From the NCBI GenBank assembly GCA_032622095.1, contig CP136061.1, positions 37,081,797 to 37,145,796 of the forward strand: a DNA stretch of 64,000 nucleotides, in the 5' to 3' direction. This DNA is from Siphonodentalium dalli. Its lineage: Eukaryota > Mollusca > Scaphopoda > Gadilida > Siphonodentaliidae. The position numbers were made by a program, and so were the translations under genes. Shown in pieces: positions 32,801 through 38,800 of this stretch. The notes beneath the pieces are model-generated. The model did not search any database and was not told where the DNA came from. It saw nothing but the letters and a program-made list of their open reading frames with translations. Each line of letters starts with the position of its first letter. The stretch's first letter is position 1.

Positions 32801-35800
32801 TTAGTTTTTGCATGTACCTGATGTCTTCTTCAGATGTTTACCACTTACAAATTGCGGTTTTTATTATCCCGCTAACTTGAAGTAGAATTGAAACAATGGA
32901 AAATTGTTTACTCATTGAGATGTATTTCACGCCGTATCTGTCACGGTTTCATGTCAAGAAATTTGGTCACATGATATCGAGACAATGGTATTGATGGGAT
33001 ATAAATGTGTGGTGTTTCGTGATTTCTGAAAGTACATGTATACAGGGCGAATGTACTGACTGTCAATTTTCGACAAAAGCGACACCGCTGGTTTGTTTAT
33101 ACAGCAACGAGCTAGTAACGGAAGTCAGTAAACTTGGCGCCAACTCTATGCATCTACTCCGTAACATCATCGGCATGTACTGCGTAAGGGTGAAGTCATG
33201 GATAGACACGGAACACTGTGAGCGGAAATGGATTGGCCATGGACGAGATTTGGAATTCAGCTGACGTCAATATTGGCATATCTAACATTGAAGCGGTGAA
33301 CCGGACTATACTTTGCGACAGTTTATCGATAATTAACCCCCCGCAAATATGTGATGTTTCAGGGGGTATATTCGCATAAGTGCATTAGAATGCATCTTTA
33401 ATGTAATCCAGATATTCTCATTATAGTTATGTATGAATGTGTTGCTTGGTTTTGTCTTTATATACCCTTGTTAGCCTTGACTAAAGAATATTTAAATGTT
33501 TTCAGATATGGATCGCATTGTTCCATCTTTTGATGACTCCAACATGTCAGCAAAAATACGAAATCAACCCTTATCGAAAAAACATTCTGCTAAAGGTGAG
33601 CAATAAACCCCCCTCTCTATATGATGGTGAAGATTACACCATTTGACCATATGTGACCCGCCATATCAAATCCAGTCGTAAGTCGGGATTTTTTTAACCC
33701 TGTGCCAATGCATTCTCTTATATATGAGAGTCGACCATAGGTCGCCTCGCATATATAAGAGAATGCATTGGCCTAACAATTTTTTACAATTTTAATAATT
33801 TTTTTCTTGTATTCTTTAACAATTTTTATAATTTCACCCATACAGAGCCCCAGACAAACATGAGCAGACGACACTCTTCTATATGCTTCTATATATGTGT
33901 GGGACTCCCTGCAGGGTAATGGATGTTTTTTATTTTTTGTCCTAAAAATTGTAAGAAACATTTATTTAAAAAATTGTTAGGCAAATGCATTCTCTTATAT
34001 ATGCGAGGCGACCTATGGTCGACTCGCATATATAAGAGAATGCATTGGCACAGGGTAAAAAATTCCCGACTTACGACTGGATTTGATATGGCGGGTCACA
34101 TATCTTATAGGCTGTGGTCACAGTGTGGTATATTGATGAGTTCGACCTTATTTCATTTTGAAACTTTTGCGGTTTTAAACAAGGAACCAATCTGTTGAAA
34201 AAGAGCCATTGAGTGTGTGAATATTCATAAAACAATGGCAGAGGATGGTTTTGATAGCAATGTTCATTCTACGGTATATGCATTTGTATCTATATTTGAG
34301 ACAAAGGTCTATTATTATTATTTCACAGACAAACTACAGGCCCTTGGGGAAAAAATATTAAAATACTACTATTCTAGTCTATACCAGTGACCAGTTTCAC
34401 AACAACTATAAAAACCCTTGTATATTCTAGAAATCTACCAGTTCAGCCAAAATTGGCAATAATATTCCCTCTCGTTTGACATATAACTCGGCAAAATTGA
34501 ATGAAGTCGAGATATCGCATTGGAAACTACCGAAATCTACAAAATAAATTAGGCTGCCATTTTGGGTGTCCAATCAGCGGCCTTTGACCCAGTAATAAAA
34601 TTAATATTTATGAGAAAAATTTGTCGTGGATGTGTACTTGTCAGATATGTTCAACAAGTCATTCCAAACCCATCCAAACTGTTTTTTTATTTCACCTGGT
34701 ACACGTACATGTTTGTTTGTGCTCCATTTTTTAAACTTTATTTATAAAACACATTCCAGAAATGGGACAAGTTCCATCAGTGACAATAGGATGTTGAGGT
34801 TGTCACCCCCCCCCCCACATTTTGATACATATACATGGGATTCAGGCCATTTGTGGAATTCATACCCCTCTGTTAGCCGGTAGTCAGGGTTTATATCCTC
34901 ATCTTCAATGATTTTTGGGATTCTTAAATCAAATTCGGGATTAAAACAAAAGGCCTGTATGTGTGATGGTGACAAACTGTGGTATTTGATGGCTAGAATG
35001 GATGTTTTTAGCCCTTTTTAGGGTCTTGTTCTGTTAATCGGGTGCTAGTGATGAAAATAGATGGTAAAATCTATGTCCTTTATAATGGCTTCATTATGTA
35101 TTTTCTTAACTGGTATTCAGTATCCATCCCACTTTGTTCACTGATATTCAGTATTCACCCCCTCTCCTATATTAACTGGTATTCATTATTCACTCCCTTC
35201 TCTTAAATGGTACTCAGGATCCAATTCTAAAAGTACACATGTATATTGTTATGGGATATTCCTCATACTTATAAAATACAAGCAGATGGCAGGCAGTAAG
35301 AAGTGCCTTATGGTTCCATTCATCCATTTGTAAATATATTCAGATATTTGTATCTCACTGAGAGCTTTCCGATGAATGGCAACAAGCCATATTTCCGACT
35401 AAATCCTGAAAATTTACCCATAATTCTGCTGTGGTTAAGGAGTCGATTATTGAGGGCATTTCTGTACCTGTATTAGGGATATGCAGCGATTCCTTGATCC
35501 TTGTAATTTATTTTTCAGCTGAGGTCATACCTGATGGAGGTGCTGATTGATCAGTTACATGTATTGGGTGATATAGAGCGACTCATTGATAAGCTATACC
35601 TGTATTGTATTATTCAGCTGAGGTTGTACCCGATGGAGGTGCTAATTGATCAGTTACCTCTATTAGGTGACATGCCGCGATATCTTGATAAGTTATACCT
35701 GTATTGTATTTTTCAGCTGAGGTCATACCTGACGGAGGTGCTAATTGATCAGTTACCTCTATTAGGTGACATGCAGCGATATCTTGATACATTATACCTG

Positions 35801-38800
35801 TATTGTATTTTTCAGCTGAGGTTGTACCCGATGGAGGTGCTAATTGATCAGTTATCTCTATTAGGTGACATGCAGCGATATCTTGATAAGTTTTATCTGT
35901 ATTGTATTTTTCAGCTGAGGTCATACCTGACGGAGGTGCTAATTGATCAGTTACCTGTATTAGGCAGTATAGAGCGATTCCTTGATCAATACATTATACC
36001 TGTATTGTATTATTCAGCTGAGGTTGTACCCGATGGAGGTGCTAATTGATCAGTTACCTCTATTAGGTGACATGCCGCGATATCTTGATAAGTTATACCT
36101 GTATTGTATTTTTCAGCTGAGGTCATACCTGACGGAGGTGCTAATTGATCAGTTACCTCTATTAGGTGACATGCAGCGATATCTTGATACATTATACCTG
36201 TATTGTATTTTTCAGCTGAGGTTGTACTCGATGGAGGTGCTAATTGATCAGTTATCTCTATTAGGTGACATGCAGCGATATCTTGATAAGTTATATCTGT
36301 ATTGTATTTTTCAGCTGAGGTCATACCTGACGGAGGTGCTAATTGATCAGTTACCTGTATTAGGCAGTATAGAGCGATTCCTTGATCAATACATTATACC
36401 TGTATTGTATTATTCAGCTGAGGTTGTACCCGATGGAGTTGCTAATTGATCAGTTACCTCTATTAGGTGACATGCCGCGATATCTTGATATTAAGTTATA
36501 CCTGTATTTTTCAGCTGAGGTCATACCTGATGGAGGTGCTAATTGATCAGTTATCTCTATTAGGTGACATGCAGCGATATCTTGATAAGTTATACCTGTA
36601 TTGTATTTTTCAGCTGAGGTCATACCTGACGGAGGTGCTAATTGATCAGTTACCTGTATTAGGTGACATGCAGCGATATCTTGAGAATTTATCGATGATG
36701 GACCCTCCAGCTGCCAAGAGGGAACTCATTTTAGAGCAGGTATTCTTTCAACACCATTATATAAATACTACAATATGGCTGAATCAGGCCTTTAATCAGC
36801 GTCAGGAGCTTGTGGCCCCTGCACATGCTTTGCGCACATGTTCATCTTCGACAAAGCCTTTATTCAGCAGCGACAGCCCCTTTTAAACAAATTTAATTTA
36901 GTGAGCTCCTTGCTCAATTAAACGCACATTTTTTATAATATTTTTTTATATCAAAATTTTGAAAAACTAACAACGTGGTAACATCTGCCATGGTACCCCG
37001 TGTCATCACACTAAATTTGCTTGAAATCGGTCCAGGGTCTGGGAGAAAAATCCAAACAGACAGATATACCGGCAGATCCTACTCTTTTATGTATATAGAT
37101 TAATGATCTAAGTAAGCGACTTCTTAACCACAGCAGAATTATGGGTAACTTTTCAGGATTTAGTCAGAAATATGGCTTGTTTTCCGATGAATGGCAACAA
37201 GCCATATTTCCCCCGACTAAATCCTGAAAAGTTACCCATAATTCTGCTGGGGTTAAGAAGTCGCTTACTTAGAGCACTACTGTAGATATACAGTGCAGCA
37301 AATACATGATTATGCGCAATTTTGTCAAATGGAACTTGTCCCTCAGATATTGGTAATTTTTTAGTTCATTGTATGTGTATATTTATTTATTGTTTTTCTT
37401 GCCTACATTAACTATGCTGGTAAAAATCAAAGATACATGATCACTACATATACAGATTTTACTATGGGGTAGATCGCGAATCAAATTGGGCAACTGCGAT
37501 AAAAAAGATTTTTTGTGGCCATCAACCAACCAGAATTTGCATTCAGGAGGGAAAAATGTTTTGATGAATTACCATATTATGTTATATAAATTAAAAGAAT
37601 TTCTAATAATATTGAATTTTGAATTTATTTTAAAGGTTCCTGAGATAAAAGATAAGATCTTGAAAGAGAATGAGGGGAAATGGGGAAAGATTGCAAAGGT
37701 TCAGGCTAAGACATTCTTCAACACATCGGATAATGACATGAGGGATCAAGCAAAAAGGTATGCACCAACTTCAATGACGGGTAATACGTAACAGGCAGTG
37801 GTCATGCTGGGCCAAAAAAAAACTTTGGCCAAATTAAATCCTAATTTTCTGGTAATGAATATTTTTGTTTTATTTAACATCTAACATTCTATATAATTAT
37901 GTCCATACCTTCAAATACTGTGTCTAGACTTCTTTAATCCACCGGTGTTACTTGACAATATACCACTACCCACCATCTACATTATGCCAGACAAAAGATT
38001 CATTAGTGTTAATCCTCATTACTGTTTTATTTCATTTGCCGCACATTGTTTGATAGTGCACTGCAATGAGTGCCTTTTGTTACTCATTAAGCTGTATCAT
38101 CTAATCAATTAGCAGTTGATCAAACTATAAATTTGATTCTCATGTCGCTCCCATTCCAAACTGGGTTTTTGAATTAGATTCCTGAGTTTTGGGTAAAAAA
38201 AACTTAGGCCAAATGAAATGTTTTTTTGTCTTATTCGAAACAAATTTGCCATTGGCCAATTGGCCTATGGCCGTGTGAATCCTGGTAACAGGTCACCTAA
38301 ACATTCATGAGCTCTAAAGGGGAAATATTTCGTCAATAATACACGAATTGAAATATCACTATTACTTTCATTTATAGATTGCAATGACGTCACACATTAT
38401 ATTATGCACTTGAAATTATATGTGGCCTCTCGTAATTGTGAAAATTGGATATTGAAAAAGAGGTTGGGTGAACGTTATATTGTCAACTTGATATTTAAAA
38501 AAAAAATGAGAATTCTAATAAACATAAAACTTTTGCCATGTACATTTGTGATTTTAGTTTCCGGAGGGTTTTGGACCCACAATTGTAGCAATTGGATTCA
38601 GAAATATGAATAACTACTACACCAACTTTTTGGGGTTGTTCAGAGCTGTATTTATTTTTCCATACAGAAGTAGCTGGATAGCATCACCAAATTCACACTC
38701 TGGGAACCTCATTCTGCTGAGGCCTCAACTGCTATGGCAACCTAGATCAGATTGAAGTTCCCCAGTTGAAGTTGGTGATGTTCACCCATTTGTCACCTCG

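What the first reader, a model, noticed from the sequence alone, without database searches (positions are those of the whole stretch)
35519..36739. Exon 10 of ZMYND10 has been amplified 12-fold together with its own splice acceptor
Eleven tandem copies of the first about 70 bases of the exon plus about 29 bases including TTTTCAG lie directly upstream of the functional exon. The period is 99 bp, exactly 33 codons, so coding frame survives within sub-blocks, and a 400-bp higher-order duplication shows recent unequal exchange. Each unit offers a plausible 3' splice site. The nearest upstream acceptor (36515) would add 33 residues in frame (the coding half plus the translated pyrimidine tract). 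The others lead to stops because of the 97 and 103 spacings. This is a natural array of competing acceptors within a conserved ciliary gene.
Basis: partly seen in the sequence, partly recalled or inferred. Interest (0 to 1): 0.75.

Follow-up and report, generated by a model that had tools for sequence, protein, structure and literature searches.

The report
Tandem copies of an exon boundary
Inside a cilia-assembly gene of an unnamed animal, the stretch where one exon begins, splice signal included, has been copied head to tail into a row of twelve near-identical splice sites; the same kind of repeat is known from amphioxus genes, where normal splicing seems undisturbed, so this is most likely harmless repeat DNA that could still serve as a natural splicing test.

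Summary
Intron 9 of a ZMYND10 gene (13 predicted exons, 456 codons) ends in a 99-bp tandem array, 35502-36692. It holds 12 copies of the exon 10 acceptor, 11 of them upstream of the real exon. Two 400-bp blocks differ at 2 sites. Acceptors 1-10 lead to stops; only 36515 (+33 residues) and 36614 read through. The 'competing acceptors' interpretation is only partly supported. All 12 acceptors score within the range of the gene's 10 other mapped acceptors, so they are plausible decoys. But the copies look neutral (22 distinct changes, 8/7/7 by codon position, non-synonymous share as chance predicts), and minisatellites are common in this genome (14 in 180 kb sampled). [quoted passage not shown] One, in globin gene BflGb6, also repeats intron end plus exon start; haplotypes had 6 and 3 units, and RT-PCR suggested that regular splicing goes on. 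I read this locus the same way: a mirage-type minisatellite, the exon probably spliced mainly from 36614, with possible leak to 36515. Splicing here is inferred, not shown.

The parts
5713..43222 (+). ZMYND10 gene (coding span, 13 predicted exons, 456 codons plus stop)
33506..33595 (+). exon 9, phase 0 end, donor AAAG|GTGAGC
33596..36613 (+). intron 9 (3018 nt), ending in the array
35502..36692 (+). 99-bp tandem array, 12 copies of about 70 nt exon start plus about 29 nt intron end with acceptor
   Evidence: TRF; units listed
35457..35500 (+). degraded partial copy at the upstream edge, next to a fragment of a palindromic interspersed repeat (35381-35460)
   Evidence: alignment and intron controls; inverted repeat I2
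35618..36017 (+). higher-order block, units 2-5 (400 bp)
   Evidence: 2 mismatches to 36018-36417
36018..36417 (+). higher-order block, units 6-9 (400 bp)
   Evidence: 2 mismatches to 35618-36017
36515..36613 (+). unit 11, the only upstream copy whose acceptor keeps the frame into exon 10 (+33 residues)
36614..36739 (+). exon 10 proper (126 nt), donor CAG|GTATTC

Best explanation
This is a mirage-type minisatellite that nucleated across the intron 9/exon 10 boundary of ZMYND10. Shown by sequence: a segment of about 29 nt intron end plus about 70 nt exon start is repeated head to tail 12 times, and a 400-bp four-unit block has a near-identical twin. Inferred: expansion and homogenisation went by unequal exchange or slippage, perhaps helped by the unit's self-complementarity. 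Inferred: the 11 upstream copies evolve neutrally inside the intron, and the splicing machinery, defining the exon between 3.0-kb and 0.9-kb introns, mostly pairs the exon 10 donor with the nearest acceptor, 36614. The in-frame 36515 acceptor (225-nt exon) may leak and add 33 residues. Use of acceptors 1-10 would need exons of 322-1221 nt and give premature stops, so such transcripts should be rare or destroyed.
For: Array and block structure. Precedent: amphioxus mirages repeat the intron-exon boundary, in BflGb6 the intron 3' end with the exon 5' part, at 81-100% unit identity, 6 and 3 units in two haplotypes, and RT-PCR suggested no interference with regular splicing (PMC3087553 section 16). 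Copies 1-11 against exon 10, first 69 nt: 22 distinct changes, 8/7/7 by codon position; each judged alone, 15 are non-synonymous and 7 synonymous, against 66% non-synonymous expected, p = 1.0. By whole codons, 15 of 19 distinct variants change the residue, and 5 of 11 copies lose the leucine of codon 5 (4 to P, 1 to S). Exon-derived columns vary no less than intron-derived ones: 22 of 71 against 7 of 28, Fisher p = 0.63. Minisatellites are common: 14 arrays (period >= 30, copies >= 4) covering 7,663 of 180,000 bases in 18 pieces from 9 of 9 contigs, and 6 merged arrays in the window, this one included. Exons of 322-1221 nt and stops for acceptors 1-10; the gene's other internal exons are 67-134 nt. 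Human data: between long introns, sites nearest across the exon are favoured (PMC9225289 abstract, passages, section 9).
Against: No transcript of this gene was seen, so the main use of 36614 is inferred. Local sequence does not favour it: 3 of 11 upstream acceptors score higher (1, 5, 9), 5 equal, 3 lower, and 1 of 82 other AGs earlier in intron 9 also scores higher. For 3' sites between long introns, section 9 of PMC9225289 says the upstream preference is significantly reduced; its text does not say it is reversed. 12 of 12 CAGs are intact, although chance alone gives that a probability of 0.35. The neutrality tests rest on 22 changes and have little power.
Confidence: 0.78

Rival explanations
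1. Working alternative-acceptor array: 36515 and 36614 are both used at meaningful levels and give two ZMYND10 isoforms, the longer with a duplicated 33-residue segment; upstream acceptors act as a sink that lowers output through premature stops.
For: 12 of 12 array acceptors score within the authentic range (2.6-5.7 against 2.5-9.7; top 0.8-4.2% of all AGs in the window). Only acceptors 11 and 12 give a full frame, and only they define an exon under 300 nt. A TTGAT branch-point-like motif precedes 12 of 12 acceptors.
Against: Unit 11 differs from exon 10 in three places in the first 69 nt, all non-synonymous (T>M, P>S, V>L). No constraint is seen in the copies. Its frame match had a 1-in-3 chance. 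The amphioxus precedent speaks for silence.
Confidence: 0.13
2. Intron gain in progress, as reported for potato and proposed for amphioxus mirages: units act as small exons, each from its acceptor to an internal donor (GAG|GTGCTA or GTGCTG 21 nt in, present in 11 of 12 units), with a mini-intron to the next acceptor. Because 21 nt is 7 codons, the 97 and 103 spacings would not matter.
For: Same anatomy as the potato RdRp case (PMC4974935) and as the mirage model of intron gain (PMC3087553). GT follows the first 21 nt in 11 of 12 units, and AG|GTGACA lies 49 nt in for 9 of 12.
Against: The 21-nt donor scores 0.7 (2.0 in unit 1) and the 49-nt donor does not reach 0; every one of the 11 mapped donors scores higher (2.8-7.4), though those were also the training set. 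The same GAG|GTGCTA lies inside exon 10 itself.
Confidence: 0.04
3. Assembly artefact: the copy number was inflated or collapsed during assembly.
For: No reads could be examined; two 400-bp blocks are nearly identical. For BflGb6 the amphioxus authors found the draft assembly of a mirage aberrant (PMC3087553, passage).
Against: Units 1-11 differ from one another in a structured way (80-100% identity), the array is only 1.2 kb, and the genome is held as 9 contigs of 190-301 Mb, which suggests long reads.
Confidence: 0.05

Closest known systems
[quoted passage not shown] the Adh3 paper itself was not held)
   Same: in BflGb6 the repeated segment is the 3' end of an intron plus the 5' part of the next exon; units 81-100% identical; homogenisation; many units carry splice signals
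   Different: 6 and 3 units of 150-160 bp there, 12 units of 99 bp here; another gene; the animal here is not identified, so whether it is outside the cephalochordates is open; no haplotype or RNA data here
Tandem duplication across an intron-exon boundary in the potato RdRp gene (PMC4974935: abstract and Results and Discussion read)
   Same: the duplicated segment is intron end with branch site, pyrimidine tract and acceptor, plus exon start
   Different: two copies, with a cryptic GTAAG donor that made a new, expressed intron; here 12 copies, with internal donors weak by my score
Minisatellite with multiple splice donors in human IFI6 / 6-16 (Turri et al. 1995; seen only as a reference and through a passage of PMC4526556)
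   Same: a minisatellite repeats a splice site, so that several copies can serve
   Different: IFI6 repeats donors, and repeat units are used; here acceptors are repeated with 70 nt of coding sequence, and use is unknown

Membership tests
Mirage minisatellite (amphioxus type) | minisatellite-like tandem repeats spanning an intron-exon boundary | tested here: met
   12 units of intron end plus exon start
Mirage minisatellite (amphioxus type) | concerted evolution of inner units, diverged edge units | tested here: met
   units 2-5 and 6-9 differ at 2 of 400; edge unit 1 is 81-88% to units 2-11, the others among units 2-11 80-100%; exon 10 at the other edge is 69 of 70 to units 3 and 7, so that edge is not excluded from exchange
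Mirage minisatellite (amphioxus type) | length differs between haplotypes or cells | not testable with these tools
   one assembled genome only
Mirage minisatellite (amphioxus type) | regular splicing goes on | not testable with these tools
   no RNA data
ZMYND10 (DNAAF7) | C-terminal MYND finger and full-length similarity to ZMYND10 | tested here: met
ZMYND10 (DNAAF7) | intact reading frame, single copy | tested here: met
   456 codons open; exon 4 has one match in G000 and exon 10 none outside this array (other exons not searched)
Intron gain by tandem duplication (potato type) | duplicate spans intron end and exon start | tested here: met
Intron gain by tandem duplication (potato type) | internal donor of usable strength | tested here: not met
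   internal donors score below all 11 mapped donors in a model trained on those donors
Splice-site minisatellite (IFI6 type) | several unit sites are used in transcripts | not testable with these tools
   no RNA data

The most novel reading that the evidence does not exclude
A live acceptor array: several of the 12 sites are used, copy number varies between individuals, and so the amount or length of ZMYND10 (and dynein-arm assembly) varies with array length. Array units may also convert the working exon: units 3 and 7 differ from exon 10 at 1 of its first 70 nt, so the acting acceptor and exon start are themselves interchangeable array members.
Probability: 0.09. Interest if true: 0.6.

Novelty: new member of a known kind. 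Interest (0 to 1): 0.27.

Why it matters
Twelve acceptors with near-identical local sequence lie in one intron of a conserved gene. That is a ready natural test of what decides acceptor choice when strength is equal: order of transcription, distance across the intron or distance across the exon. It adds a 12-unit case to the few described mirages and, if the animal is not a cephalochordate, extends them beyond that group. The acceptor and a branch-point-like motif of the real exon now seem to come from repeat copies.

Tried and rejected
Coding selection on the copies: looked for and not found. In one search changes at the last 3 of 69 positions of units 5 and 9 were left out because of the nearby insertion; one search shows no codon change there in those units. 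In one search, columns with more than two gaps were left out.

RNA structure hiding the decoys: 401 nt of the array folds better than 100 of 100 shuffles (z -4.84), and a tiled real unit beats 60 of 60 tiled shuffled units, so the unit is self-complementary. Of 4 other arrays in the window, 1 (the 41-bp one) gives a like value (z -4.3) and 3 do not (+3.1, +0.5, -0.2). Predicted accessibility of the pyrimidine tract hardly separates the 12 sites (acceptor 12 is highest with the wider window, 0.55, and third with the narrower, 0.57). I do not build on it.

Rfam: 0 matches in 33000-38000. Pfam on two array frames: nothing above cut-off. Exon 10 protein against plasmids: no match.

Reading passages of three papers that my earlier listings held showed that one of them, PMC3087553 in the listing, describes just that in amphioxus. 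I changed the novelty class, lowered the interest and the odds of the functional readings, and raised the odds of the silent reading. The other two (DDX3Y, earthworm metallothionein) describe minisatellites but, in the passages seen, no repeated acceptor. The remaining papers were seen as listings only, apart from those named in Closest known systems and PMC7536079 (passages) and PMC2915984 (one reference).

Relatives: no other animal genome could be searched, so age and conservation of the array are open. The organism was not identified; a ribosomal RNA search for that purpose failed.

Full report
Gene. Ten acceptors besides exon 10 and eleven donors were mapped; the frames join except between exons 4 and 6, where an exon of length 1 mod 3 was missing. 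A scan with the gene's own splice-site scores gave one candidate that met my thresholds, 19535-19601, and with it the frame is open for 456 codons to a stop at 43222. The protein carries a MYND finger and its best PDB matches are the ZMYND10 MYND domains. Exon 4 has one match in the genome. ZMYND10 is a co-chaperone for axonemal dynein assembly (PMC6044906, abstract).

Array. The last 1.1 kb of intron 9 is made of 11 copies of the exon 10 start with its acceptor, followed by the real exon. Period is 99 with exceptions 103, 103 and 97. Unit types run 1, A B C D, A B C D, A', 11, 12, where the two ABCD blocks of 400 bp differ at 2 sites; this is what a recent unequal exchange of four units would leave. 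Unit 1 is the most diverged full unit (81-88% to units 2-11), so the array is older than its last exchange. A partial copy, 35457-35500, precedes it (score 55 against at most 32 in 87 intron controls). It abuts a fragment of a palindromic interspersed repeat of which a full copy lies at 37092-37288; the first look found 1,803 candidates for that repeat in the genome, of which 40 were scored.

What the copies could do. In the frame of exon 9, entry at acceptors 1-5 stops at 36047, at 6-9 at 36447 and at 10 at 36544, each 193-690 nt before the exon 10/11 junction; by the usual rule (recalled) such messages are decay targets. Acceptor 11 gives 33 extra residues in frame. Scores trained on the gene's 10 other acceptors put all 12 array acceptors (2.6-5.7) within their range (2.5-9.7); acceptor 12 is not the best, and 1 of 82 other AGs in intron 9 also beats it. 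Ten training sites make a coarse model. Internal donors are weaker than each of the 11 mapped donors, but those were the training set, so the comparison leans in their favour.

Neutrality. Against exon 10, copies 1-11 hold 22 distinct changes in the first 69 nt, evenly spread over codon positions, with the non-synonymous share expected by chance when each is judged alone; by whole codons, 15 of 19 distinct variants change the residue. No in-frame stop arose by substitution; chance of that is 0.28. Exon-derived and intron-derived halves vary alike. The intact CAG in 12 of 12 units has a chance of 0.35. Nothing here calls for selection on the copies, but the tests are weak.

Base rate. In 18 pieces of 10 kb taken at round coordinates on 9 of 9 contigs, 14 tandem arrays of period 30 or more and at least 4 copies cover 7,663 of 180,000 bases; 9 of the 18 pieces hold at least one. 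If arrays fell blindly, a few percent of exon boundaries would be hit; most such hits should be harmful and lost (inference). One tolerated case is not surprising; what allows it is that the last copy keeps a whole exon with its donor.

Acceptor choice. In human data, between long introns the sites closest across the exon are favoured, and the upstream bias for 3' sites is reduced (PMC9225289; abstract, passages and section 9). Intron 9 is 3018 nt and intron 10 is 896 nt, so the exon-centred rule should apply, if this animal follows it. I infer main use of 36614 and possible leak to 36515. A branch-point-like TTGAT has its A 27-33 nt before acceptors 2-12 and 22 nt before acceptor 1; in the units it begins with exon-derived TTGA, so the real exon's branch point may now come from former coding sequence (inference).

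Known or new. [quoted passage not shown] There units are 81-100% identical, two BflGb6 haplotypes had 6 and 3 units, Adh3 varied even between cells, and RT-PCR suggested that regular splicing is undisturbed. A two-copy duplication of the same anatomy made a new intron in potato (PMC4974935), and a minisatellite with several donors is known in human IFI6 (citing passage). This locus therefore is a new, 12-unit member of a known kind. I did not identify the animal, so I cannot say whether it widens the group in which mirages occur.

Noticed in passing
43294-44910: 67-bp tandem array of 24 copies, 97% matches, starting about 70 bp after the ZMYND10 stop codon; it may lie in the 3' untranslated region.
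   Followed up: no
47724-50523: 41-bp tandem array of 68 copies with a 125-bp higher-order period; its RNA also folds better than shuffles (z -4.3).
   Followed up: partly
58006-60075 (-): Open frame of 689 codons matching three multicopper oxidase domains of Pfam (laccase-like).
   Followed up: partly
62341-63903 (+): Open frame of 520 codons with a GDSL lipase-like stretch, possibly from a mobile element.
   Followed up: partly
33649-34103: Palindromic element inside intron 9 with 51-nt and 96-nt inverted arms and two internal hairpins of 33-nt arms.
   Followed up: no
37092-37288: Palindromic interspersed repeat of about 197 bp, with matches on 9 of 9 contigs (40 of 1,803 candidates scored) and a half copy at 35381-35460 at the edge of the array.
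   Followed up: partly
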